Shown: positions 4,168 to 26,277 of the stretch, piece by piece
Layout of the letters: every line of letters starts with the position of its first letter
Position numbering within the stretch: position 1 is the stretch's first letter
IMG/VR virus record: IMGVR_UViG_3300037155_000051
Coordinates: 1-27,238 of that record
Length of the DNA stretch: 27,238 bases
Direction: 5' to 3' (one strand)
Source of the DNA: a virus
Notes under the pieces: generated by a model
Database searches by the model: none
Seen by the model: the letters and a program-made list of their open reading frames with translations, nothing else
What the model was told of the DNA's origin: nothing
Made by a program: the position numbers and the translations under genes

Positions 4168-6423
4168 CTATTCAAAGTCTTGAGCGGCAGTCGCCTCCGC
4201 AGTTTTTGCCGTGGTATCGCGTTCTTTCATGTAGAGTGCGCCGATGTCGGCGGATTGCAGGACAAGCGCGGCACTGCCATTGATTGCCCACAGGATCGGG
4301 CGCGCACCATCGGGCAAGCGATGCTGACCGATGCGCTTGCCGCGCAGCTTGCGCCGCAGGAATGAGCCGATCACATTGCCGAGACGCTGTGTTTTCTCAA
4401 GACGCTTCGGCATGTTGTCGATCACATCTTGAATGGTGACGAGACGACGATTGAGCGGCGCGTTGCCAGCGTTCTCAGTCATCCACGTATCAACATCGCC
4501 CATCGTTTGTTCGATCATCTCGGACTTTGCCATGTTCATCGGCGCGCTTTCATGGCCATTGTACGATCCGAGCTTCCGCTCTTGTAGTTCATAAGCTACA
4601 GCCGCGAGCGCGTCGGGGTCACGCAGGATCGAGAAGAGCCGCGCATAGTATGCAAAGTCGCGCTTCGCCGCGTCAGTGCGAACGACAAGCCATCGGCGGT
4701 CGCTGTCTTCGAGCGGCAGTGCATCAATATGGTTTGAAATCGCGAACATCGCCATATAGTTCTCAATCTGGAACGCAGCGATGTTTTTCATATTCACTTC
4801 GATGAACGGCTCGGTGATGATGTCACGCAATTCGTTCGCCACTTCGCGTCGGCCAATCTGCATCAACTCTTCGATGACAGCGAGCTTGCATTGTGCGGCC
4901 CACCCGTTGAAATCACCCTTGAGTGAGCTATTCTTTGGCCGCTTCGTATTCGGCACGCCGATCAGTTGTTCGAACACGCGAGCGATGAAGCTCTTGCCAG
5001 TGCCGTGCGTCTCGCCTACGAGCAACAGCGCGTGGTTCGGCTTCGCGGCCTGATTTTGATACACCCATGCCATCCAATTCAGGACGTGATCGCGATCTTC
5101 CGCGTTCGGGAATAGATATTCGAGATGCTCACGCCAGATTGTCGTGTCACCTTGCGCCGGGACAACTTCCGATGTGCGCCACGTATTATATAATTCGCCA
5201 ATGACTTCACCCATGCCGGGCCGAAAGATCATCTTGTCGAGCTTCTCCATGCCGAGCCTCCGTGAGAATATGAAACGCGAGACCGATGGCTTTTGCAAAT
5301 AGTTGTACTTGCTATCGAACGCCTTCGATGTCCATATCACGCCATCGCGTCGGCGCACGAAACGCTCTTGCCCGACGATCCACACCCATTCTTTATAGAG
5401 GCGTTGCAGCGACATCGGTGCAGGCTTGTTCGGCTTGTTGTCGGTGCCGGTCGCCGCCTGCACTGTCTCGACCGGCACGCCGCTGTCACGCGCAATCGTC
5501 GCTTCGATGTCCGCGATCTCGTCTTCGGTGAGCGGCGGGAATTGGGCTTCGGCAGTAGATGCGCCCGGTGCGTTGATGTTCGCATAGTCGTATGCGTTGT
5601 CGATCTTTTTGTCGAGATCGGTGTCAGTCCACAGCGGGTCGCAGATTGGAAAGACGTTGTAATGGTCGGCCATCAACATCTTCGCCTGCGTGCGCGATAT
5701 GCCGTGATCGCGCAACTCCATCGCAGTCTTGAGCGTGGTCAACTCGCCGCCGCGACCCTCGATAGCTTCATCGGCATCATTCTTTAGGAAGTAGATGGCC
5801 CACTCGATATTGTGCGGCTGATCGACTTCAACGACAGCATCGGATTGATTGCTACCCTCGACGCGCTCTTCGGGCTTGCGCTTGCGCAGGAACTTCCAAA
5901 ACCATTCGGGCGACCATGCGTCTTCGCCATTCCACTTCTCATTCGTATATTCGGTCGGGGGGACTTCACGATATTTCGTGCCATCTTTCAGTTCGCAGCC
6001 GGGGATCAGCACGTAATTCGTGCTATCAATGTCGGGGCCGAAGCCGCTCTTGCCTAGCGCGTTGACGTGCTGGCCGGGCTCACAGCGATATGTCAGATGC
6101 AGTCCGCCGCTTGGCGTCTCAACCGTGCGCGTCGGCGGGAAACCGTATTCGAGCGCCAGCAAATTGAATGTGTGCTGACCGCTCTTGCCTTCCTTGCGAT
6201 CAAGATCGACAACGATGCGATTAGATTTCGCGTTCGCCTGTCCCCAGTTGCAGCCGGGGAAGCGAGCGTGCCACTTTTTGATTTGATCCGGGTCGTTGCT
6301 CGCGCGTTTCAGATTGTCATCGAAGCATGGCGGATATTTTGCGAGCGGGGTGATCGGGAAGAGATAGCAATCCGGATTGAAGTCGAGATAATCGAGCGCG
6401 GTGTTGAGTGTGTCACGCGGCAT
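4168..6423 (-). CDS. Primase-helicase (Prim-Pol plus SF3-type ATPase)
   Basis: The protein (751 aa) joins two activities of phage DNA replication. Residues about 15-145 match an archaeo-eukaryotic primase/polymerase domain: a DLD metal-binding motif at 73-75, TPSGGLHL at 103-110, and GPDIDS near 129-134. Residues about 440-600 form a DUF5906/SF3-like helicase with Walker A GETHGTGKS at 470-478, a Walker B-like AVIEEL at 515-520, and SNH plus DRRW near 563-578. It therefore probably primes and unwinds DNA at the phage origin. The start at 6423 has GAGG about eight bases upstream. The divergent repeat region at 7973-9277 would be its natural target, by inference. Confidence 0.88.
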   Translation of the reverse strand: MPRDTLNTALDYLDFNPDCYLFPITPLAKYPPCFDDNLKRASNDPDQIKKWHARFPGCNWGQANAKSNRIVVDLDRKEGKSGQHTFNLLALEYGFPPTRTVETPSGGLHLTYRCEPGQHVNALGKSGFGPDIDSTNYVLIPGCELKDGTKYREVPPTEYTNEKWNGEDAWSPEWFWKFLRKRKPEERVEGSNQSDAVVEVDQPHNIEWAIYFLKNDADEAIEGRGGELTTLKTAMELRDHGISRTQAKMLMADHYNVFPICDPLWTDTDLDKKIDNAYDYANINAPGASTAEAQFPPLTEDEIADIEATIARDSGVPVETVQAATGTDNKPNKPAPMSLQRLYKEWVWIVGQERFVRRRDGVIWTSKAFDSKYNYLQKPSVSRFIFSRRLGMEKLDKMIFRPGMGEVIGELYNTWRTSEVVPAQGDTTIWREHLEYLFPNAEDRDHVLNWMAWVYQNQAAKPNHALLLVGETHGTGKSFIARVFEQLIGVPNTKRPKNSSLKGDFNGWAAQCKLAVIEELMQIGRREVANELRDIITEPFIEVNMKNIAAFQIENYMAMFAISNHIDALPLEDSDRRWLVVRTDAAKRDFAYYARLFSILRDPDALAAVAYELQERKLGSYNGHESAPMNMAKSEMIEQTMGDVDTWMTENAGNAPLNRRLVTIQDVIDNMPKRLEKTQRLGNVIGSFLRRKLRGKRIGQHRLPDGARPILWAINGSAALVLQSADIGALYMKERDTTAKTAEATAAQDFE

Positions 6424-11142: not shown

Positions 11143-11475
11143 ATGAAAGACGCAAAAGGACACGGAAGCAACGCCAAAACCGACTCTGTTACTGCTGCTG
11201 AGATTAAGCAGCATATTTTCAGCGGTGGCGGCAAAATTCGGGCATCCAAAGTTGATGTTGATACCGGGGGACCCGGCGGGCGCTATCGGGCTTGGGTAGA
11301 AACCCCGGTGGCAAACAAGATGTTTGGCGATCTTACTGGCTACAGTGCCTCCGTTGGCCTTCCATCTTTTATTGCAGCGCACGCAAGCGACATAGCTGAA
11401 TTTATTAACAAATACGGCAATGGGGCACCTGCGATTGCGCATCAAAGCGGCGTCGAGAAAATTCCTCACAACTAA
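11143..11475 (+). CDS. Transposon passenger protein with KDAKGHGS leader
   Basis: The 110-aa product starts MKDAKGHGSNAKTDSV, the same type of leader as six phage proteins at 18127-20191. Near its C-terminus AIAHQSGVEKIP resembles IPAHQSGIEA in the phage protein at 18127. The middle (GGRYRAWVETPVANKMFGDL, then a helical stretch ending INKYGNG) shows no known domain. GGGAG lies about seven bases before the ATG at 11143. It lies inside the transposon, between the left end and the zinc-ribbon gene. It may be a captured phage gene or a family that works with mobile DNA; function unknown. Confidence 0.78.
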   Translation: MKDAKGHGSNAKTDSVTAAEIKQHIFSGGGKIRASKVDVDTGGPGGRYRAWVETPVANKMFGDLTGYSASVGLPSFIAAHASDIAEFINKYGNGAPAIAHQSGVEKIPHN

Positions 11476-11728: not shown

Positions 11729-12799
11729 ATGATCCCAGATATTCACCAATGGGAAAAGCTGCCATTCCCCAAGTCTCTGCCGCAGTTTCAAAAGTTGTTC
11801 CCGGATAACGCGGCCTGCGCCCGCTATCTTGAGGGTGCAAAATGGCCTGACGGCCTCCATTGCCCGCACTGCAAAGCCGCTGGCGAGCCGCTGTACTGTT
11901 CTGCGGCGCGTCCGCATGTGATCGCCTGCCGAAAGTGCCGCAAGCAAACGTCCCTGACGGTCGGCACGGTCATGGAACGCACCCATACGCCACTGACGAC
12001 TTGGTTTTGGGGCGCTTACCTCATTTCCAGCATGACGCCCGGCCTGTCTGCCGTTCAATTCCAGCGCCAGCTTGGCTTGACCCGATACGAAACTGCCTTC
12101 GGCATCCTGCACAAGCTTCGCGCCGGTATGGTGCGCCAAGACCGCGACCGGATCGGTGGCAGTATTTCGGGCCGGGACCATATCGAAATCGACGAAACCT
12201 ACATCGGCGGCGTGCTGCGCGGCGAAGGCAGAGGCCCACATGCTGACGACAAGACGCTGGTAGTTGCCGCCGTCGAGGTTCGCACCCGACCGCCCAAGAA
12301 GGGCGACAAGCCCGAACGGCGTGGCGGGCGCTACGCTGGCCGTCTTAGGCTGGAAATCGTCCCCGACCGCACTGCCAAGTCCCTGTGCGGCTTTGTAGAA
12401 GCTGCGGTTGATCCTACATCCAACATGGTCGTTACCGATGCTTGGGGCGGCTACAACTCGCTGGCTGATCGCGGCTACGCCCACATGCCGGTTGTCAAGT
12501 CGAACAAGCCCGATGTTGCCGAAGAATATCTCCCTATCGTCCACTTGGTTTTCAGTAATTTGAAGGCTTGGCTGCAAGGCACGCACCACGGGCGCGTCGA
12601 GCCTAAGCACCTGCAAGCCTACCTCAACGAATTTACCTTTCGCTTCAATCGCCGCTTCTACCCGTTCAACGCCTTTCGTTCGCTCTTGGGCATTGGCGCA
12701 AACGGCGAAAGCCCGACTTATGACGGGCTGTATAGCGGCGAGTGGACACACCCGAATGTCAGTCATGGAACACATCAACCGCTAGAGCCTGTATGTTGA
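11729..12799 (+). CDS. ISXO2-like transposase, IS1595 family
   Basis: The 356-aa protein has an N-terminal zinc ribbon (C45, C48, C67, C70) and a DDE-type catalytic core: IEIDETYIGG with Asp155, VVTDAWGGYN with Asp237, and FSNLKAWLQGTHHG with Asn277, the third-residue region of the DD(N/E/H) set. This order is diagnostic of ISXO2-like transposases, which excise and insert DNA at 8-bp target sites. An AGGA site precedes the ATG. The coding end overlaps the right inverted repeat. The frame is intact, so the element may be active. Confidence 0.92.
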   Translation: MIPDIHQWEKLPFPKSLPQFQKLFPDNAACARYLEGAKWPDGLHCPHCKAAGEPLYCSAARPHVIACRKCRKQTSLTVGTVMERTHTPLTTWFWGAYLISSMTPGLSAVQFQRQLGLTRYETAFGILHKLRAGMVRQDRDRIGGSISGRDHIEIDETYIGGVLRGEGRGPHADDKTLVVAAVEVRTRPPKKGDKPERRGGRYAGRLRLEIVPDRTAKSLCGFVEAAVDPTSNMVVTDAWGGYNSLADRGYAHMPVVKSNKPDVAEEYLPIVHLVFSNLKAWLQGTHHGRVEPKHLQAYLNEFTFRFNRRFYPFNAFRSLLGIGANGESPTYDGLYSGEWTHPNVSHGTHQPLEPVC

Positions 12800-17857: not shown

Positions 17858-18055
17858 ATGCCCATACGAAAAGTCAAAGGCGGTTACAAGTGGGGAGGCC
17901 ACGGGAAGGTCTACTCGAACCGCGCCGGGGCTGCGCGCCAAGCTGCGGCAGCTTACGCGAACGGCTATAAAGGTGACGCCGCGAAGACTGCGAGCGACCG
18001 CCATAGTGCCAAGCATGTGCTAGGCCAGAACGACAGCACCTACCACAACAAATAA
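17858..18055 (+). CDS. Small conserved phage protein, 65 aa
   Basis: The product (MPIRKVKGGYKWGGHGKVYS...) belongs to a recurrent family of short phage proteins with the pattern RKVKGGYKWG...GKVY followed by an Ala-rich helix. Function is not known. A strong GGGGGAG lies upstream. It opens the block that contains the leader-bearing proteins. Confidence 0.78.
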   Translation: MPIRKVKGGYKWGGHGKVYSNRAGAARQAAAAYANGYKGDAAKTASDRHSAKHVLGQNDSTYHNK

Positions 18056-18126: not shown

Positions 18127-18618
18127 ATGGCAAAAGATCAACTCGGACACGGCAGCGACACACGCGGCGGGCCAACTACACCCCCGGGTCGCGTGGTAGG
18201 ATCATCGGCAGTTCGCGGCCAGCCTGATATTCCGGCCCATCAAAGCGGCATTGAGGCGACGACCGCTCCGATGCAGCGTCGGCAGTTTGAGGCCATCGCG
18301 GGCGCGATCAACGAGACGAATGTACCCGGCGTGGTTAAGGGCGCTCTCGCGCAGCATTTTGCCAATGCGCTGCGCGGCTCAAATCAAAACTTCAACGCGG
18401 AGAAATTCCGCACTGCCGCGACAACCGGCGACATGGGCCGCACGAAAACTGCGCCCGCCAGCATGACGCGCTCGCACTATGAGACCGTCGCGCACGCGGT
18501 TCACGATTTCAGCGCGTCACATCCCGAAGCGAAGGGTCTTGCCGAGAGTTTCGCCAGTTCGCTCGGCAGGCGCAATCCGAACTTCAACGCGAGTAAGTTT
18601 ATCAGCAAGGCGAAGTGA
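18127..18618 (+). CDS. KDQLGHGS-leader protein with duplicated domain, 163 aa
   Basis: The leader MAKDQLGHGSDTRGGP is followed by a linker with IPAHQSGIEA and two tandem copies of one domain, about residues 49-98 and 112-162. Each copy has (R/S)xx(F/Y)Exx(A)..., then FA(N/S)(A/S)LR, then NxNFNA(E/S)KF; the pattern NPxFxxxxFxxA is widespread in small phage and plasmid proteins. The copies differ enough to be an old duplication. This is the first of six leader-bearing genes. Function unknown; the duplicated domain is probably structural or DNA-linked, by inference. Confidence 0.82.
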   Translation: MAKDQLGHGSDTRGGPTTPPGRVVGSSAVRGQPDIPAHQSGIEATTAPMQRRQFEAIAGAINETNVPGVVKGALAQHFANALRGSNQNFNAEKFRTAATTGDMGRTKTAPASMTRSHYETVAHAVHDFSASHPEAKGLAESFASSLGRRNPNFNASKFISKAK

Positions 18619-18620
18619 CG

Positions 18621-18845
18621 ATGAAAGATGCTCTCGGGCATGGTAGCGACAATCGCGGTGGCAGCAATCCAGGCGCACCGACTGGCCGTGGCGTTCATGG
18701 TCGCTACTTGATCCAAAAGCTCAACACGAAACTCGCTGGCAATCCGTGGCAAGTGACGAAGCGCGTCGGCAATCGTGCCGTTGCCGAGCGAACCGCCGAA
18801 CGGATGCGGATCGACAACGCAGACACACTTTTCAGGGTGAAGTGA
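18621..18845 (+). CDS. KDALGHGS-leader protein, 74 aa
   Basis: The product starts MKDALGHGSDNRGGSNPGAP and continues with a short basic domain (RYLIQKLNTKLAGNPWQVTK, then an Ala/Glu/Arg helix). AAGGCGAAG precedes the ATG. It lies two bases after the previous stop. The leader is shared with its neighbours; the body is not. Confidence 0.78.
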   Translation: MKDALGHGSDNRGGSNPGAPTGRGVHGRYLIQKLNTKLAGNPWQVTKRVGNRAVAERTAERMRIDNADTLFRVK

Positions 18846-18846
18846 C

Positions 18847-19203
18847 ATGGCAAAAGACGCACTCGGACACGGCAGCGACCCACAGGGCTTAGGCAATGGC
18901 CCGGACCCCCGTGGACTTCGCTCGGGTATCAAGATCATGGGCGGCGCGCAGTTCTCAGGTAAAAAGCTCAGCGGCTATTCGCCGTCGAGCGGCGGTGCGG
19001 CGCTTGTCAACAATATCCGGGGCGGCAGGCCGGTCAATACACACCCGTCAATGACCAATTCATCGGGTCACGCATGGGGTTCGCTTGCGGCTCTTGCCGA
19101 CTTCAAACGTGAACATGACGGACCACGCGATCATGCCGCCGAGCAACGCGGCTTCAACAGCGGCGCACGCGAGATCGCGCGCCTGCGGCGACAGGGGAAG
19201 TGA
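18847..19203 (+). CDS. KDALGHGS-leader protein, 118 aa
   Basis: The leader MAKDALGHGSDPQGLGNGPD is followed by a Gly/Ser-rich basic body with a partial internal echo (DPQGLGNGPDPRGLRSG) and a VNTHPSM segment that recurs as LHPSMTD in the protein at 19551. The C-terminus is basic (REIARLRRQGK). It is adjacent to both neighbours. Function unknown. Confidence 0.78.
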   Translation: MAKDALGHGSDPQGLGNGPDPRGLRSGIKIMGGAQFSGKKLSGYSPSSGGAALVNNIRGGRPVNTHPSMTNSSGHAWGSLAALADFKREHDGPRDHAAEQRGFNSGAREIARLRRQGK

Positions 19204-19204
19204 C

Positions 19205-19543
19205 ATGGCAAAAGACGCACTTGGCCACGGAAGTGAAAGTCGCGGCGCGGCGGATGCACTCTCGCAGGGTCATCCGAAATCAAGCGTAGTTCCAGTTCAT
19301 CCGGCGTTTCCGGCTGGTACAGTCGGCTATCTCGAACAAAAATATGCTCAAGCGAAGGGCCTAGTTGGTCAGCGTGTCGAAATGCCGGTGCATTACGATG
19401 CGTGGGCTATGGGCAATCGCTATGGGCAAGTAACGAGCGTCGGTCGTGGTGGCAAATTCGTGAATGTGCAGCTTGATAAAACGCCGTCTCAGCGCACGAA
19501 GCTGCACCGTGTTGACTTTGACTACGCAAAAGTTATCAAGTGA
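19205..19543 (+). CDS. KDALGHGS-leader protein, 112 aa
   Basis: After the leader MAKDALGHGSESRGAADA comes a GHPKSSVVPVHPAF segment shared in part with the next two genes, then a small beta-rich domain (YGQVTSVGRGGKFVNVQLD) resembling a barrel. The ATG directly follows the previous stop and shares the same GAAG-TGAC-ATG context as its neighbours. Confidence 0.8.
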   Translation: MAKDALGHGSESRGAADALSQGHPKSSVVPVHPAFPAGTVGYLEQKYAQAKGLVGQRVEMPVHYDAWAMGNRYGQVTSVGRGGKFVNVQLDKTPSQRTKLHRVDFDYAKVIK

Positions 19544-19550
19544 GGATGTC

Positions 19551-19988
19551 ATGGCAAAAGATGCACTCGGCCACGGGAGCGACACACGCGGCTTGAACGC
19601 CCGAACCCCGGACAGCGCGAACGTGCCGCTGCGCGGGCACGCGAACCACTTGAAGTCGAACGACGAACTGCGCGGCATCGTGAAGGATGCGGGCGCGGCA
19701 GCCGAAAACTTCCGCAACACCGGCATGATGGTGCCGGGCACGAACGTCTTGACCGAAAACAAGTACATGGATCAGATGCACGACGCGAACACCGTGCTTG
19801 GCTATCGAGCGCGTGGCGGGCGCGACTTCTCGCAGACCGCAGATGCGTCAGCCGCCCGCACTCTCGGTGGGCATCCGAAGTCGGCTGCGGTCGGGCTGCA
19901 CCCTAGCATGACGGACAAAGCCGAAGCGGCGCACTTCGCTGCAATGGCCGAACGTCAATCCGGCCATCCAGCCAAGTGGAGGCCATAA
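19551..19988 (+). CDS. KDALGHGS-leader protein, 145 aa
   Basis: The leader MAKDALGHGSDTRGLNARTP is followed by a helical body and a C-terminal GGHPKSAAVGLHPSM region shared with sister proteins. GAGG precedes the ATG. Its TAA overlaps the next ATG. Length and body differ from the other members, so only the leader and the GHPKS motif point to common function. Confidence 0.8.
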   Translation: MAKDALGHGSDTRGLNARTPDSANVPLRGHANHLKSNDELRGIVKDAGAAAENFRNTGMMVPGTNVLTENKYMDQMHDANTVLGYRARGGRDFSQTADASAARTLGGHPKSAAVGLHPSMTDKAEAAHFAAMAERQSGHPAKWRP

Positions 19989-20191
19989 TGGCAAAAGATG
20001 CACAAGGCCACGGCAGCGGTGCGCCCAGTTCGGTGAAGCAATCGCGCCCGAAAAAGCAAGCCGATGTCGTGGATTGGATCACGCAAAACACGAAGCTTGC
20101 GCTCGGACAGGATCATCCGAAATCCCGCAGTAACGGTGCGCCGGGCGGCGTTCGCACACTCCCGGGCCGAGACAATTCCAAGGCTGTATAA
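19988..20191 (+). CDS. KDAQGHGS-leader protein, 67 aa
   Basis: The last of the six: MAKDAQGHGSGAPSSVKQSR, then a short helical part (VVDWITQNTKLALGQ) and DHPKSRSNGAPGG, echoing the GHPKS motif of its neighbours. The protein is very basic, as would suit contact with packaged DNA, though this is speculation. A promoter-like element begins right after its stop. Confidence 0.76.
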   Translation: MAKDAQGHGSGAPSSVKQSRPKKQADVVDWITQNTKLALGQDHPKSRSNGAPGGVRTLPGRDNSKAV

Positions 20192-20262: not shown

Positions 20263-20553
20263 ATGAACATTGCCCGCGACGGTGCAGCCAAAAATCCGCA
20301 GACTTCCTTTCCGGTCAAAGAGACCATGAAGGATATGACCACGCTTTCGGGTGTCGCTCCGGCGAACCCGGGCACCGGCCCGGACGCTTCGAGCCCGAAC
20401 CCGCTCGACGCCGAGCCGCGTGAGAAGCTTCTCAAAAAGCAAGGCTCCGTTCTCGCCCCCGCGTGGGATATGAAAGACGGCATGGGCGAAGGTCTCGACG
20501 ATACCATCGGCGGGGCCGTGATGGACGAGGGCGAACTTTCGGCCAAGCTATAA
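20263..20553 (+). CDS. Hypothetical protein, 96 aa
   Basis: The protein (MNIARDGAAKNPQTSFPVKE) is Pro/Gly-rich in the middle and acidic at the end. A GAGAGGGG site precedes the ATG. It lies in the head-gene region, where small decoration or internal proteins are common, but it has no recognised domain or the KDALGHGS leader. Confidence 0.7.
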   Translation: MNIARDGAAKNPQTSFPVKETMKDMTTLSGVAPANPGTGPDASSPNPLDAEPREKLLKKQGSVLAPAWDMKDGMGEGLDDTIGGAVMDEGELSAKL

Positions 20554-20653: not shown

Positions 20654-20860
20654 ATGGCAACAGACATCGTAGGTTCAAACATGCCGTCGAAAAACGGCTA
20701 CGGCCAGAATGGGGACAAGAGCCCGGCGAGCGTTCAACCCGGCGACCCATGTGGTAAGAGCGGCTTCCTTCCGGCAGTAACAGTTCCGACCGATCCGTGG
20801 CAGACCCGGGATGTCGGCAAGAGCGGCATGGCCGCGAAAGCTCCCGGCGCAAAGAAATAA
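20654..20860 (+). CDS. Hypothetical protein, 68 aa
   Basis: A Gly/Pro/Lys-rich protein (MATDIVGSNMPSKNGYGQNG). I chose the ATG at 20654, which has GGGAG six bases upstream; an ATG at 20648 overlapping the previous stop is possible. The basic, low-complexity end (SGMAAKAPGAKK) suggests a flexible or nucleic-acid-binding tail. Confidence 0.65.
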   Translation: MATDIVGSNMPSKNGYGQNGDKSPASVQPGDPCGKSGFLPAVTVPTDPWQTRDVGKSGMAAKAPGAKK

Positions 20861-20935: not shown

Positions 20936-21619
20936 ATGGCCCGAGAAGTTACATCTCGCGAAGAGACTAGGCTTGTAGGCCCGGGGCGAAAGTATTCCCC
21001 CACGCGGCTTCGCTTGCTCATAAAATTCGCCGCTGAAAATCCCATCAAAGTCGATATGTGTCGGCGCGCTGGTATATCCACGCGCCTATTGCACCGCTGG
21101 ATCGAGCAAAGCAAAGGTGGGCATCCCGCGTTTCAATCTCTTCTCATTGACGGCGAGATAGTGAAATTCCACGACGCGCTCGCGGCGGCGTTCGAGGATG
21201 CAGTCGGACCCATAGAGCAAACGATGCGCGGTCTCGCGACAGGAACACACCGGAAAGTCCTCACTCATCAAGGCCGCGTACAGTACCGCTATGATCCCGA
21301 TCTTCTCGCGCTCGGGTTCGAAGGTCCGCAAGCGTATCTACTCGACGAAAATAAAATGCCGATCCCCGAGATTATCGAGGAAGTTGACCCCGATATGGTT
21401 CGATGGGCATTGGAGCGGCTCAGCCCCGAGAAATATCGAATTGCGCAAAAGATAGACGTGAACCACACCGGGGGTGTGCTTGTGGTCGGCGCGCAGTTGA
21501 CCAAGGAACAATTCGCGGAGAAGTTTGTCGGGAAGCGCCCCGATGACGAGCCGACCGATGTTGAGTTTGAAGTCATTGACGAAGCCGATCCGACTGCCGC
21601 AGGCAATCCCGATGAATGA
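20936..21619 (+). CDS. Terminase small subunit-like protein, 227 aa
   Basis: Residues about 25-60 form a helix-turn-helix (RLRLLIKFAAENPIKVDMCR, AGISTRLLHRWIEQ), the DNA-binding part of terminase small subunits, which select phage DNA for packaging. The C-terminus is acidic (PDDEPTDVEFEVIDEADP). AAAGGA precedes the ATG at 20936. The stop overlaps the large-subunit start by eight bases, the usual pairing in tailed phages. Confidence 0.72.
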   Translation: MAREVTSREETRLVGPGRKYSPTRLRLLIKFAAENPIKVDMCRRAGISTRLLHRWIEQSKGGHPAFQSLLIDGEIVKFHDALAAAFEDAVGPIEQTMRGLATGTHRKVLTHQGRVQYRYDPDLLALGFEGPQAYLLDENKMPIPEIIEEVDPDMVRWALERLSPEKYRIAQKIDVNHTGGVLVVGAQLTKEQFAEKFVGKRPDDEPTDVEFEVIDEADPTAAGNPDE

Positions 21620-23183
21620 CGGGATCGGAAATCATGTCGTTCACAAGTGGCGGCTAAAGCACGGCGTGTGGGTGCCGCTTATCATCGACGACTTCGGTCT
21701 CGAAAAGGAAGTTATCTGGGCTCCGCAGGCCGGATCACAGGATGCGTTCCTATCGTGTCCGACACAGGAAGTTCTCTATTCCGGTACACGCGGCCCGGGC
21801 AAGACCGATGCACTCTTGATGGACTTCGCTCAGCATGTGGGTCTTGGCTATGGCGCGAACTGGGTCGGCATCATCTTTCGTCACAGCCATCCCGAACTTC
21901 GCGACATCATCGAAAAGAGCAAGCATTGGTATAACCTGATCTTCGCGGGTGCGTTCTACAATGAGATCAAGTTTTTCTGGGAATGGCCGACAGGTGAGCG
22001 CCTCTACTTCTCGCACTTCGACACGCCTGCGGACTACACAAAATATCACGGCCATGCGTTCACATGGATCGGATGGGAAGAGTTGACTTCGTGGAATACA
22101 CCGGACTGCTACAAGTCGGTGTTTTCGCTCTTGCGGTCTACCGTGCCCGGCATCCCGCGTAAGATACGCGCCACGACGAACCCGCACGGCGTCGGCCATA
22201 ACTGGGTCAAGAGCCGCTTCCGGATCACGACAGTCGATCCGAAAGTTGTGGCCGGGCCGGTGATCTCCGATGCGCGTGACATTGCCGGGCATCCGGAGCC
22301 GCCGCGTCAGGTCATCTTTGGCTTCCTCGAAGAGAACAAGATTTTGCTCAAGTCCGATCCGGACTACGTGAACAACCTGCGGCAGTCGGCTCGAAGCGAT
22401 GCGCAGTTACAGGCATGGCTCTATGGGTCATGGGATATTGTCGCGGGCGGCATGTTCGACGACATCTGGCATGGCTACAAAGATACCATCGTCGTCAAAG
22501 AGTTTATCCCGCCGCCTAGCTGGCCAATCTTTCGGGCATACGATCATGGATCGAGCAAGCCGTTTTCAGTCGGATGGTACACGATCAGCGACGGCTCGGA
22601 CATCATGGCGAATGGAAAAGTGCGCGCCACGGTGCGCGGCGATCTATTCCGGATTAAGGAATGGTACGGCTGGCGCGGCAAAGAGAACGAAGGTTCGCGT
22701 ATGCTAGTCACTGAGATTGCTCGCGGCATTATCGAACGCGAGATCAAGTTCGGTTGGCGCTCGGTCGATGGATCGTGGTGCAAAGTGAAGCGTGGACCCG
22801 CTGATACGTCTATCTTCGACGAGAACAATGGCGTGTGTATAGCCGATGACTTTGAGCGGCCAGTTTTCATCAACGGTGTGAAACATCGGGGCATTGTCTG
22901 GGAGCGGGCTGACAAAGGTCCGGGCTCCCGCGTGCAGGGATGGGAGCAAACCCGTCGCCGCTTGAAAGCGACCAAGCGCCTCGATGGAGAAATACGCGAA
23001 ACTCCCGGTTTGTTTGTAGCAGACGAGTGCTATCATTGGCTCCGCACAGTGCCAGTTTTGCCGCGCGACGAGATCAAAGTAGATGATGTGGATACCGAGG
23101 CCGAAGACCACGTAGGAGACGAAACACGCTATATGCTGCGGTACGAACCACGCACAGTCGGGTCGCGCCGAGTGCCGGTCTAA
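21612..23183 (+). CDS. Terminase large subunit, 523 aa
   Basis: The packaging motor ATPase/nuclease. The ATPase part has Walker A GTRGPGKTD at about 58-66 and Walker B FTWIGWEEL at about 150-158. The C-terminal nuclease part has FRAYDHGSSKP, the first metal-binding Asp, PADTSIFDE, and EDHVGDETRYML near the end. The start at 21612 overlaps the small-subunit stop; a longer frame upstream is inside that gene. Together with the portal it pumps DNA into the procapsid. Confidence 0.93.
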   Translation: MNDGIGNHVVHKWRLKHGVWVPLIIDDFGLEKEVIWAPQAGSQDAFLSCPTQEVLYSGTRGPGKTDALLMDFAQHVGLGYGANWVGIIFRHSHPELRDIIEKSKHWYNLIFAGAFYNEIKFFWEWPTGERLYFSHFDTPADYTKYHGHAFTWIGWEELTSWNTPDCYKSVFSLLRSTVPGIPRKIRATTNPHGVGHNWVKSRFRITTVDPKVVAGPVISDARDIAGHPEPPRQVIFGFLEENKILLKSDPDYVNNLRQSARSDAQLQAWLYGSWDIVAGGMFDDIWHGYKDTIVVKEFIPPPSWPIFRAYDHGSSKPFSVGWYTISDGSDIMANGKVRATVRGDLFRIKEWYGWRGKENEGSRMLVTEIARGIIEREIKFGWRSVDGSWCKVKRGPADTSIFDENNGVCIADDFERPVFINGVKHRGIVWERADKGPGSRVQGWEQTRRRLKATKRLDGEIRETPGLFVADECYHWLRTVPVLPRDEIKVDDVDTEAEDHVGDETRYMLRYEPRTVGSRRVPV

Positions 23184-23243: not shown

Positions 23244-24956
23244 ATGGCAATAAATGATCGGCACCCCGAGTATATCAATCGTATCGGTGAGTGGATACAG
23301 ATGGGTGACACCTATGCGGGTGAGCGCGAGATCAAGCGCAAGCGCATTGACTACCTGCCCCCGACTTCCGCTATGGTGCAGGACGGCATGACATCTCCAC
23401 AATCCCCCGGGTGGGTTGATTACGAAGCCTACTTGCAGCGCGCCGTCTACCATGACGTGATCCGCGATGCAGTCAAGGCGATGGTCGGCATCATGCACAT
23501 GAAGCCCGCGACGATCACGCTGCCAGAACGTATGCAGCCGATGATGGACCGGGCGACCGTGCAGGGCGAAGGCTTGCAGATGCTTTTGCGCCGGATCAAC
23601 GAGGCGCAACTCGTCAAGGGTCGCTGCGGCTTGCTGGCCGAAGCGCCGACTGGCGTGGACGTGAACAAGGCAATTCCGTACATCGCGTTCTATGACCCGG
23701 AGCGTATCATCAACTGGGATGCGGGCATACGCGAAGAGGGCAAAAACGAATTGGAGATGGTCGTCATTGACGAAAGCGGAAAGCAACGTCATGGCTTCAT
23801 CTGGAAAGACATGCGCAAGCATCGCGTACTCAAGCGCGGCCCGATTGACACCCCGGAGACCAATGCGGAAGCCGCGTTCTCCCGGCCCGGTGCGGATGAT
23901 CCGTATCAGGTGTGCGTCAAAATTGACGATCTATCCATGCCGCTCGATGCAGACTTTATCACGCCGCAGATTGGCGGGCGTGATCTAAAGGTTATCCCGT
24001 TTGTCTTCGTCGGCGCGAACGATCTCGTACCCGAACCGGAAGTCCCCCCACTTCTCGGTCTTAGCAACCTTGCGCTCGCCATCTATCGCGGCGAGGCCGA
24101 CTATCGGCAGACGCTATTCATGCAAGGCCAGCAAACGCTCGTCATCATCGGCGGCAACACTGCCGACAAAGACGAGCCGCTTCGCGTCGGCGCGAAGGGC
24201 GTCATCGACTTGAAGATCGGCGGCGATGCGAAGTACATCGGCGTCACCGCTGCCGGACTTGGCGAGATGCGCCAGTCGTTGAAGAGCGACAAGGATAGCG
24301 CGACCGCATGGGGCGTCTCGTTCATGGATGTCGGCAATGCACGCGGCGAGAGCGGCGAAGCATTGCGTATCCGTGTTGCGGCTCGCACGACCACAATTTC
24401 GTCGGTCGCCCAGACGGGCGGCGCGGCGCTCGAACAAGTGCTAAAGTTTTGCGCGATGTGGATGGGTGAGAACCCCGATGAAGTTCGCGTCGAACCGACC
24501 ACCGACTTTGCCGATACGACCGTGCAGGGTGCAACCGTGCTGGCCTTTATGCAGGCCAAGCAACTCGGCCTGCCGCTATCTGACAAGTCGATGCACCGTT
24601 CGATGCGGGCAAACGATCTTACCGAATTGACCTTCGAGGAAGAGATCGACCAAATCAACGAGGAAAAAGTACAGGCCGCGCAAACCGCGATGGCTCTCAA
24701 CGAGGCACTCGGGCTCGATCCGCTCACTGGGCAGCCGCCTGTCACCGATGCAAGCTTCTCGGATACGTCGCCAACCGGCGATGCAGGAAGTGCAGCGGCG
24801 GACACTGGCGATGCGGCTGCCACTATTCCGCCCGAACCAATCACTCCGCCGATCCTACCGGGTCGCAGCGTGCCGATCACGCCGCACACTCGAAAGCAAC
24901 CGAACCCACTCAAGCTCAAGGTGGGCAAAAAGGGAGCGTCGGCAGGAAAAGCTTGA
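23244..24956 (+). CDS. DUF4055-type portal protein, 570 aa
   Basis: The protein (MAINDRHPEYINRIGEWIQM...) matches the DUF4055 portal-like family, with an N-terminal region of the form YLPPTSAMVQ, a long central helical and beta region (PFVFVGANDL, LALAIYRGEADYRQTLFMQG), and a C-terminal disordered Pro/Gly/Lys-rich tail from about residue 505. A GGGGAG site precedes the ATG. Portals form the 12-subunit ring through which DNA enters and leaves the head; position just after terminase fits. Confidence 0.86.
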   Translation: MAINDRHPEYINRIGEWIQMGDTYAGEREIKRKRIDYLPPTSAMVQDGMTSPQSPGWVDYEAYLQRAVYHDVIRDAVKAMVGIMHMKPATITLPERMQPMMDRATVQGEGLQMLLRRINEAQLVKGRCGLLAEAPTGVDVNKAIPYIAFYDPERIINWDAGIREEGKNELEMVVIDESGKQRHGFIWKDMRKHRVLKRGPIDTPETNAEAAFSRPGADDPYQVCVKIDDLSMPLDADFITPQIGGRDLKVIPFVFVGANDLVPEPEVPPLLGLSNLALAIYRGEADYRQTLFMQGQQTLVIIGGNTADKDEPLRVGAKGVIDLKIGGDAKYIGVTAAGLGEMRQSLKSDKDSATAWGVSFMDVGNARGESGEALRIRVAARTTTISSVAQTGGAALEQVLKFCAMWMGENPDEVRVEPTTDFADTTVQGATVLAFMQAKQLGLPLSDKSMHRSMRANDLTELTFEEEIDQINEEKVQAAQTAMALNEALGLDPLTGQPPVTDASFSDTSPTGDAGSAAADTGDAAATIPPEPITPPILPGRSVPITPHTRKQPNPLKLKVGKKGASAGKA

Positions 24957-25083: not shown

Positions 25084-25956
25084 ATGGCTAAGCTGAAAAC
25101 GATCTATGATACCATCGACGAAATCCCCACAGATATTGCCGTCGCTGACTTGTACGTTGAGCGCAACGGCAAGATGGAATTGGTCGGTGTCGAGGGTGTT
25201 CGCACACAGGCCGATGTTGACCGTGTGCAAGAGGCGCTCAAAAAGGAACGCGGCGATCACCGTGTCTCAAAAGAACAACTGTTGCGCTTCACCGACATCA
25301 ACCCGGACGAAGTTCACGAAAAGCTCGATCAGTTCGACAGCATGAAGGCGCAACTCGAAGCCTTCACGAAAGACGGAAAACTCGACGAGACCAAGCTCGA
25401 ACCTGTTATACAAACTCGGGTGAAGGCGGCTCTCGGGCCGGTCGAGCGCAACGTCGCGCAACTCGCACGTCAACTCGAAGACCAAAAGAAACTGACCGCC
25501 GATGCGGAACATGGTCGTGACGAGTTGAAGGGCACGATCAAGCGCGGTTCGGTCGAGCGCGCCATTCGCGACGAAGCGATCAAGCTCAAGCTGATCCCAA
25601 CTGCCGTCGATGATGCTATCATGGCCGGGCTCGATGTTCTCGATGTGGCCGACGATGGTGCCATCGTAACGAAAGACAAGCCGGGCGTCACCCCGGGCAT
25701 CGGAGCGGGAGACTGGCTCAAGGATATGCAGGACAAGCGCCCGCATTGGTGGCCGCAGTCGCAAGGCGGCGGTGCCGGACAAGGCGGTCGTAGCGGTGGC
25801 GTTCCGAACCGGGCCGATAACCCGTGGTCGGAAGAAGGCTGGAACATGACCAAGCAAGGCCAGCTTGTCAAAGCGAACGAGGCCAAAGCCGCCGAAACTG
25901 CGAAGGCGGTCGGCAGCTTTATCGGTGCTACGCACCCGGTCAAAGTCTCGAAATAA
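25084..25956 (+). CDS. Scaffold-like head protein, 290 aa
   Basis: The highly charged, coiled-coil-rich middle (residues about 45-170, for example LEDQKKLTADAEHGRDELKG), Gly-rich linker (QGGGAGQGGRSGG) and conserved C-terminal domain NPWSEEGWNMTKQGQ match phage scaffolding proteins that guide capsid assembly. The start has a perfect AGGAGG. The C-terminal domain recurs in the next gene. A major capsid gene normally follows closely but is not in this window. Confidence 0.76.
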   Translation: MAKLKTIYDTIDEIPTDIAVADLYVERNGKMELVGVEGVRTQADVDRVQEALKKERGDHRVSKEQLLRFTDINPDEVHEKLDQFDSMKAQLEAFTKDGKLDETKLEPVIQTRVKAALGPVERNVAQLARQLEDQKKLTADAEHGRDELKGTIKRGSVERAIRDEAIKLKLIPTAVDDAIMAGLDVLDVADDGAIVTKDKPGVTPGIGAGDWLKDMQDKRPHWWPQSQGGGAGQGGRSGGVPNRADNPWSEEGWNMTKQGQLVKANEAKAAETAKAVGSFIGATHPVKVSK

Positions 25957-26040: not shown

Positions 26041-26277
26041 ATGAACCCGTGGTCCGCCGCTGACTGGAATTTGACCGCGCAAGGTCAATATATCAAGCGG
26101 TACGGGGTCGAAGCGGGCGCTCGGCTGGCGCGCTCAGTCGGCTCGTCTCTTGGAGCCCTAAAGCCGGTCACGGCTACGATCATCAATAAGGTCTACGTCA
26201 TCCGGGGCAAAAAAGGCGACAAGGGCGACCCAGGTCCGCAAGGCGCGGTCATCCCACTTGTTCTCGATGGGGATTGA
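26041..26277 (+). CDS. Scaffold-domain protein with mini-collagen, 78 aa
   Basis: Residues 2-43 (NPWSAADWNLTAQGQYIKRY and onward to GALKPV) align with the C-terminal domain of the scaffold-like protein just upstream, with N-P-W-S, W-N-x-T-x-Q-G-Q, V-G-S and P-V conserved. Residues about 56-70 contain short collagen-like G-x-y triplets (GKKGDKGDPGPQG). GGAGGGG precedes the ATG. It may be a fibre or decoration adaptor that docks to the head through this shared domain, by inference. Confidence 0.72.
   Translation: MNPWSAADWNLTAQGQYIKRYGVEAGARLARSVGSSLGALKPVTATIINKVYVIRGKKGDKGDPGPQGAVIPLVLDGD

What the first reader, a model, noticed from the sequence alone, without database searches (positions are those of the whole stretch)
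18127..20191. Six neighbouring proteins share an N-terminal KDALGHGS leader but have different bodies
The starts read MAKDQLGHGSDTRGG, MKDALGHGSDNRGG, MAKDALGHGSDPQG, MAKDALGHGSESRG, MAKDALGHGSDTRG and MAKDAQGHGSGAPS, while the rest of each protein differs. A common short N-terminus on unrelated, basic, small proteins next to the head genes resembles the capsid-targeting peptides of T4 internal proteins. The leader could direct these proteins into the head, to a shared partner, or to a protease. The targeting role is inference; the repeated leader is seen directly.
Basis: partly seen in the sequence, partly recalled or inferred. Interest (0 to 1): 0.86.

Follow-up and report, generated by a model that had tools for sequence, protein, structure and literature searches.

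The report
Shared N-terminal tag on phage proteins
A clade of uncultured phages puts the same nine-residue N-terminal tag (M-K-D-A-x-G-H-G-S) on many otherwise different small proteins encoded next to the DNA-packaging genes; it is most likely an address label that loads effector proteins into the virus particle for injection, like but unrelated to the capsid-targeting tags of phages T4 and P1.

Summary
It is not a quirk of one contig. The leader occurs in 270 distinct proteins from dozens of IMG/VR phages, always at the start codon, with about 80 body clusters. These phages form one terminase clade; no isolate among those searched carries the leader. Codons within a genome differ synonymously as much as between genomes, so selection acts on the peptide and is old. 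Bodies include ADP-ribosyltransferases, GNATs, a ParB-like domain and a domain otherwise seen in giant multidomain phage proteins; 99% lack cysteine and most are basic. In one relative, four homologous bodies carry a different shared leader (MW[ST]DEARxAAxxAR): a natural tag swap. A conserved acidic 96-aa protein (20263-20553) accompanies the leader in 63 of 63 loci and is absent from 6 of 6 leader-less relatives: a candidate partner. Best reading: a non-cleaved N-terminal loading tag for virion-delivered early effectors. Packaging is inferred, not shown; no prohead protease of three families was found, so T4-type processing is not supported.

The parts
18127..18618 (+). leader protein 1 (163 aa): leader MAKDQLGHGSDTRGG + HQSGI motif + two copies of a small phage motif (RRxFExIAxxI...NxNFNAxKF); weak phrog_2922
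   Evidence: pI 10.26, no Cys; a leader-less, Cys-containing protein with the same motif by eye is in Rhizobium phage RHph_X3_9
18621..18845 (+). leader protein 2 (74 aa): MKDALGHGSDNRGG + ...GNPWQVTKRVGNRAVAERTAERMRIDN; homologue in L119 carries the alternative W-leader
   Evidence: E 7e-15 body match to L119_4642
18847..19203 (+). leader protein 3 (118 aa): MAKDALGHGSDPQG; body related to cluster 4
19205..19543 (+). leader protein 4 (112 aa): MAKDALGHGSESRG + HPKSSVVPVHPAF module + body of phrog_5546 family
   Evidence: leader-less 76-aa homologue in Rhizobium phage RHph_X3_9
19551..19988 (+). leader protein 5 (145 aa): MAKDALGHGSDTRG + body also present, with leader, in L047-L051; HPKSAAVGLHPSM module
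19988..20191 (+). leader protein 6 (67 aa): MAKDAQGHGSGAPS; homologues in L119 and L132 lack the exact leader
11143..11475 (+). seventh leader protein outside the array (110 aa): MKDAKGHGSNAKTDS..., C-terminal AHQSGVEKIP; homologue in a Hyphomicrobiales MAG contig (L112)
20263..20553 (+). conserved acidic 96-aa protein (pI 4.5) between array and terminase small subunit; co-occurs with the leader; candidate receptor/adaptor
20657..20860 (+). small 67-aa protein, conserved next to 20263 in many leader-bearing phages
17858..18055 (+). small basic protein (...DSTYHNK) immediately upstream of the array; related genes bracket the array in relatives
20936..21619 (+). terminase small subunit (inferred from position and homologues)
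21567..23183 (+). terminase large subunit (ORF opens at 21525); defines the leader-bearing clade
23244..24956 (+). portal protein (DUF4055)
25084..25956 (+). head scaffolding protein (phrog_206)

Best explanation
The leader M(A/S/P)KDAxGHGS[NDE] is an unstructured N-terminal address tag. A phage-encoded component of the assembling head recognises it and loads a varied set of small, basic, cysteine-free accessory proteins into the particle, from which they are ejected with the DNA to act at the first moment of infection. Shown: the tag is strictly N-terminal, selected as a peptide, carried by many unrelated bodies (some of them enzymes known from injected polyvalent proteins), replaceable by another leader on the same bodies, encoded beside the packaging genes, and accompanied by one conserved acidic protein (20263-20553). 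Inferred: recognition by a head component (that acidic protein, the scaffold or the portal), packaging, and ejection. The tag is probably not cut off by a prohead protease.
For: Strict N-terminal position: every match of K[DN].{1,3}GHG[ST] in six frames of 148 loci directly follows a start codon (260 ATG, 8 GTG, 2 TTG). Peptide-level selection: third-position mismatch in leader codons is nearly the same within a genome (0.43, 0.38, 0.61, 0.22, 0.50) as between genomes (0.48, 0.41, 0.65, 0.24, 0.54), and 21 of 39 loci use both serine codon families. Modularity: about 80 body clusters. Tag swap: four W-leader proteins of L119 match GHGS-leader bodies at E 8e-56, 7e-15, 8e-13 and 5e-10. Cargo: ART-PolyVal (E 8.7e-14, 1.5e-9), Arr-type ART (7e-7), GNAT (7e-8), ParB_N (2.7e-4, below cut-off); the largest coherent family is a domain found inside 767-1102-aa phage proteins. 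The leader is disordered and the body well folded in the model of that family. Place: 230 matches in 31 records, one strand per record, mostly clustered 1-8 kb upstream of TerL, 0 control matches. Composition: median pI 9.88, 99% cysteine-free, 0.20 Cys per 1000 aa, against about 10 per 1000 in other conserved ORFs. Candidate partner: 63 of 63 loci against 0 of 6. Precedents: T4 CTS (PMC9026906), P1 DarB N-terminus (PMC9024508), PVC packaging domains (PMC10097599).
Against: No virion proteomics exists for these uncultured phages. No prohead protease found, unlike T4. Some enzyme calls are weak (zincin below cut-off with a poor model, KptA-like not significant). A few copies lie far from the head genes (for example 11143 in the window, and about 20 kb downstream of TerL in G004 and G028). 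The acidic partner's co-occurrence is confounded by common descent, since leader-bearing phages form one clade. Low cysteine is also seen in some structural proteins (scaffold, MCP, tape measure), and the control ORF set may contain spurious frames.
Confidence: 0.58

Rival explanations
1. The leader is a docking peptide for another shared partner inside the infected cell (host enzyme, phage transcription or replication complex, membrane site); the proteins are expressed late or throughout and are never packaged.
For: All shown properties (N-terminal, peptide-level selection, modular, one conserved companion protein) also fit a cytoplasmic docking tag. A homologue of window protein 4 is leader-less and lies in the early region of a T7-like phage, so bodies can act without packaging.
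Against: Location with terminase/portal, near absence of cysteine, and a cargo set matching injected polyvalent proteins fit delivery better.
Confidence: 0.22
2. The leader is a translation or stability element: its first codons or residues raise expression or protect the N-terminus, with no specific partner.
For: It sits at the start codon, each gene has its own purine-rich upstream site, and lysine codons early in a gene are common in well-expressed genes (general knowledge).
Against: The codons vary nearly to saturation while residues stay fixed, including GHGS away from the start; exchange for a wholly different leader on the same bodies; confined to one set of genes rather than all genes of the phage.
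Confidence: 0.06
3. The leader is a recombination seam: a DNA homology block that lets cassettes be shuffled, or the remnant of recent gene duplication.
For: The cassettes are clearly mosaic, with further shared modules (HxxGV, AAxALAxGPKSxxVPVH) that are nearly mutually exclusive.
Against: DNA identity of leaders within a genome is hardly higher than between genomes at silent positions, which duplication or gene conversion would not give; two serine codon families are mixed within genomes.
Confidence: 0.06
4. The proteins are structural or core components of the head interior (a multi-gene decoration or internal scaffold set) rather than effectors.
For: Encoded with head genes, basic, many copies per genome.
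Against: Bodies differ from phage to phage and include enzyme domains.
Confidence: 0.08

Closest known systems
T4 capsid targeting sequence (CTS) of IPI, IPII, IPIII and Alt (PMC9026906, PMC7697877)
   Same: About 10-residue N-terminal tag on diverse basic, poorly conserved proteins, among them an ADP-ribosyltransferase; encapsidates foreign proteins in T4.
   Different: No recognisable common sequence; no prohead protease or gp21-type cleavage motif found here; up to 13 copies per genome; siphovirus-type TerL clade; virion location unproven here.
P1 DarB N-terminal capsid targeting signal (PMC9024508)
   Same: The N-terminal 30 residues suffice to send a reporter to the capsid; the Dar proteins act on infection.
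   Different: P1 Dar proteins show no shared N-terminal consensus according to that paper; here the consensus is near-invariant across about 80 body types.
Polyvalent proteins of phages and conjugative elements (Iyer et al. 2017, PMC5512222)
   Same: Overlapping domain set (ART-PolyVal, GNAT, ParB-like, weakly MPTase-like), phage location, proposed co-injection with DNA.
   Different: There 2-15 domains sit in one polypeptide; here single domains are separate small proteins, each with the same tag.
N-terminal packaging domains of PVC (eCIS) payloads (PMC10097599)
   Same: Disordered N-terminal tag necessary and sufficient for loading; related effector bodies occur with different N-termini in different particles.
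   Different: Acts in tail-like particles with a loading ATPase; different tag; no homology tested.

Membership tests
T4-type CTS / internal proteins | short conserved peptide at the extreme N-terminus of otherwise different proteins | tested here: met
T4-type CTS / internal proteins | cargo small and basic, including an ADP-ribosyltransferase | tested here: met
T4-type CTS / internal proteins | cleavage by a prohead protease at an [LI]xE-type site | tested here: not met
   no S78 in 26 records and no ClpP type in 16; S77 none in 16 but without a positive control; [LI]xE within residues 3-40 in 12 of 270
T4-type CTS / internal proteins | proteins present in virions and ejected | not testable with these tools
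   no virion or proteomic data for these uncultured phages
T4-type CTS / internal proteins | tag sufficient to package a foreign protein | not testable with these tools
   needs experiment; natural tag swap shows modularity only
Polyvalent proteins | two or more disparate domains in one polypeptide | tested here: not met
   leader proteins are mostly single short bodies, median 126 aa; larger ART ORFs of 591-797 aa with a different N-terminal motif lie downstream of the portal in four records
Polyvalent proteins | domains of the polyvalent set (ART-PolyVal, GNAT, ParB-like, MPTase) | tested here: met
   ART-PolyVal and GNAT over cut-off, ParB_N E 2.7e-4 below cut-off, MPTase-like only weak
P1 DarB-type targeting signal | N-terminal signal sufficient for capsid entry | not testable with these tools
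   needs a reporter fusion
PVC packaging domain | disordered N-terminus preceding a folded effector | tested here: met
   residues 1-24 and 29-38 pLDDT under 50, body over 90 in the 25-sequence model; one family only

The most novel reading that the evidence does not exclude
An entire family-level clade of phages carries a general-purpose, protease-independent protein delivery system. A short peptide tag (with at least one interchangeable alternative tag, and possibly a third on larger proteins, [PA]RDxxGRWTxGG) is read by a dedicated acidic adaptor and loads a rapidly changing library of up to a dozen separate effector proteins per virion: a polyvalent protein split into addressable single-domain cargoes.
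Probability: 0.35. Interest if true: 0.9.

Novelty: new variant of a known kind. Interest (0 to 1): 0.8.

Why it matters
N-terminal packaging tags are known experimentally from few phages (T4, P1), with little sequence signature to recognise them elsewhere. This tag is readable from sequence, so it lets one list the candidate injected proteome of dozens of uncultured phages and pick out unknown anti-host or anti-defence proteins by their tag alone. The natural tag swap and a conserved candidate partner make the mechanism directly testable, and a nine-residue tag would be a simple tool for loading proteins into phage particles.

Tried and rejected
tblastn of leader proteins against 50,697 phage records found no leader-bearing isolate. 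Structure prediction of the HEIGH-motif cargo was poor (pLDDT 52), so it is not claimed as a metallopeptidase. PDB fold search for the commonest cargo gave nothing. PADLOC gave no hits. Recombination-seam and recent-duplication origins were rejected by silent-site comparison. sigma-70 promoter and terminator scans around the array were at chance level. Literature searches for GHGS or for a shared N-terminal phage motif gave nothing. Single hits outside the clade (for example L019, L028, L040, L107-L111) were treated as chance. A family-wide host search failed for lack of a handle.

Full report
OBSERVATION. Each gene keeps the residues but not the codons (for example GGA/GGG/GGC for the first glycine, AGC/AGT for serine). 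The pattern AARGAYN6GGNCAYGGNWS occurs seven times in the window and never in 100 shuffles. The seventh copy opens an ORF at 11143-11475, near an IS1595-type transposase gene, 7 kb upstream of the array.

SETTING. Downstream follow a small terminase subunit, TerL (21567-23183), a portal (DUF4055), and a scaffold (phrog_206). The window is a 27,238-base IMG/VR record, probably a fragment. The nearest TerL among isolates is Roseobacter phage RDJL3 at 56%; the genes around TerL in that phage and in three other relatives carry no leader.

THE LEADER IS A WIDESPREAD MODULE. Two degenerate DNA patterns found it in 40 and 81 stretches of IMG/VR and in two Hyphomicrobiales MAG contigs with two copies each. 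All loci held yield 270 distinct complete proteins; the commonest cores are KDAKGHGS (103) and KDALGHGS (80). K, D, G, H, G are fixed partly because the search demanded them, but N was allowed for D and never occurred, and S against T was 268 to 2. Bodies without the leader form about 80 clusters.

SELECTION ON THE PEPTIDE. Silent third positions of leader codons differ within one genome nearly as often as between genomes, and over half of the loci mix the two serine codon families. Recent duplication, gene conversion or a DNA-level function would leave the opposite trace.

LOCATION AND DESCENT. In 31 whole records an unanchored pattern gives 230 matches, all on one strand per record, mostly in one cluster 1-8 kb upstream of TerL, against none for the reversed pattern (TerL positions). 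A TerL search independent of the leader, plus a tree of 52 TerLs, puts all leader-bearing phages in one clade (support 100/99), with 11 leader-less relatives outside; within the clade TerL falls to about 50% identity to the window, so the nine residues are very old.

CARGO. Pfam finds ART-PolyVal (8.7e-14, 1.5e-9), rifampin-ART-like Arr (7e-7), GNAT (7e-8) and ParB_N (2.7e-4, below cut-off). Both ART-PolyVal matches above cut-off in 26 records carry the leader. The largest coherent family (25 aligned) has a disordered first 38 residues and a confident fold after residue 45. The same fold occurs inside 767-1102-residue phage proteins, one annotated with a zeta-toxin domain and one as XkdF. ART, GNAT and ParB-like domains are listed for polyvalent proteins, which Iyer et al. 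argue are injected with DNA (PMC5512222). Leader proteins are basic (median pI 9.88) and 99% have no cysteine (0.20 per 1000 residues); other conserved ORFs of the same genomes average about 10 per 1000, although that set may contain spurious frames and some structural proteins are also cysteine-free. Cysteine avoidance is expected of proteins that pass through an oxidising compartment (inference).

NATURAL EXPERIMENTS. In L119 (TerL 64%) the same place holds four genes with another shared start, M(A)W[ST]DEARxA(A/S)xxAR, on bodies homologous to GHGS-leader bodies (E 8e-56 to 5e-10), next to one MRDAKGHGS gene. Other phages have one or two such genes among GHGS ones. Conversely, a homologue of window protein 4 in Rhizobium phage RHph_X3_9 has no leader and lacks the HPKSxxVPVH module too; beside it lies a leader-less, cysteine-containing protein resembling protein 1 by eye, in the early region of that T7-like phage. 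The leader is thus something added to, removed from and exchanged on bodies. A third N-terminal motif, [PA]RDxxGRWTxGG, starts larger ORFs downstream of the portal, some of which carry ART-like domains; whether it is a third tag is open.

CANDIDATE PARTNER. The 96-aa acidic protein at 20263-20553 is found in 63 of 63 leader-bearing loci that reach far enough upstream of TerL, in none of 6 leader-less relatives, and in no phage isolate searched. One further locus, L120, has it without a visible leader, but that contig is short. Loci of one contig can overlap, so 63 is not a count of independent phages, and common descent explains some of this; it is a lead, not proof.

INTERPRETATION. A tag that loads diverse early effectors into the virion explains all of this with the fewest assumptions, and has precedents in T4 (CTS, PMC9026906), P1 DarB (PMC9024508) and PVC payloads (PMC10097599). 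It is not filed as a T4 CTS: the processing protease and cleavage motif were tested and not met. Packaging and ejection remain inferred; a cytoplasmic docking tag is the main rival.

Noticed in passing
window 25084-25956 and 26041-26277: The scaffold's C-terminus (NPWSEEGWNMTKQGQ...) recurs as the N-terminus of the next gene, a short protein with a collagen-like GKKGDKGDPGPQG stretch; long collagen-like repeats follow to the window end. The shared NPWxxxxWNxTxQG module could be a coat-binding element.
   Followed up: partly
L119:4642, 4992, 5282, 6011: A second shared leader, M(A)W[ST]DEARxA(A/S)xxAR, on four genes upstream of TerL, replacing GHGS on homologous bodies.
   Followed up: yes
L160, L161, L162, L163, L119:11836 and 13012, L132:16907: Larger ORFs downstream of the portal begin with an [PA]RDxxGRWTxGG-type motif 6-9 residues after the start; some carry ART-like domains.
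   Followed up: partly
window 11729-12799: IS1595-family transposase gene inside a phage contig, just downstream of the seventh leader gene.
   Followed up: no
window 19205-19988 and many relatives: A secondary module (A)AxALAxGPKSxxVPVHxxM occurs mid-protein in 44 of 270 leader proteins and almost never together with the HxxG[VI] motif (3 with both).
   Followed up: partly
window 4168-6423 (- strand): Primase/polymerase with DUF5906 region on the opposite strand, marking the replication module.
   Followed up: no
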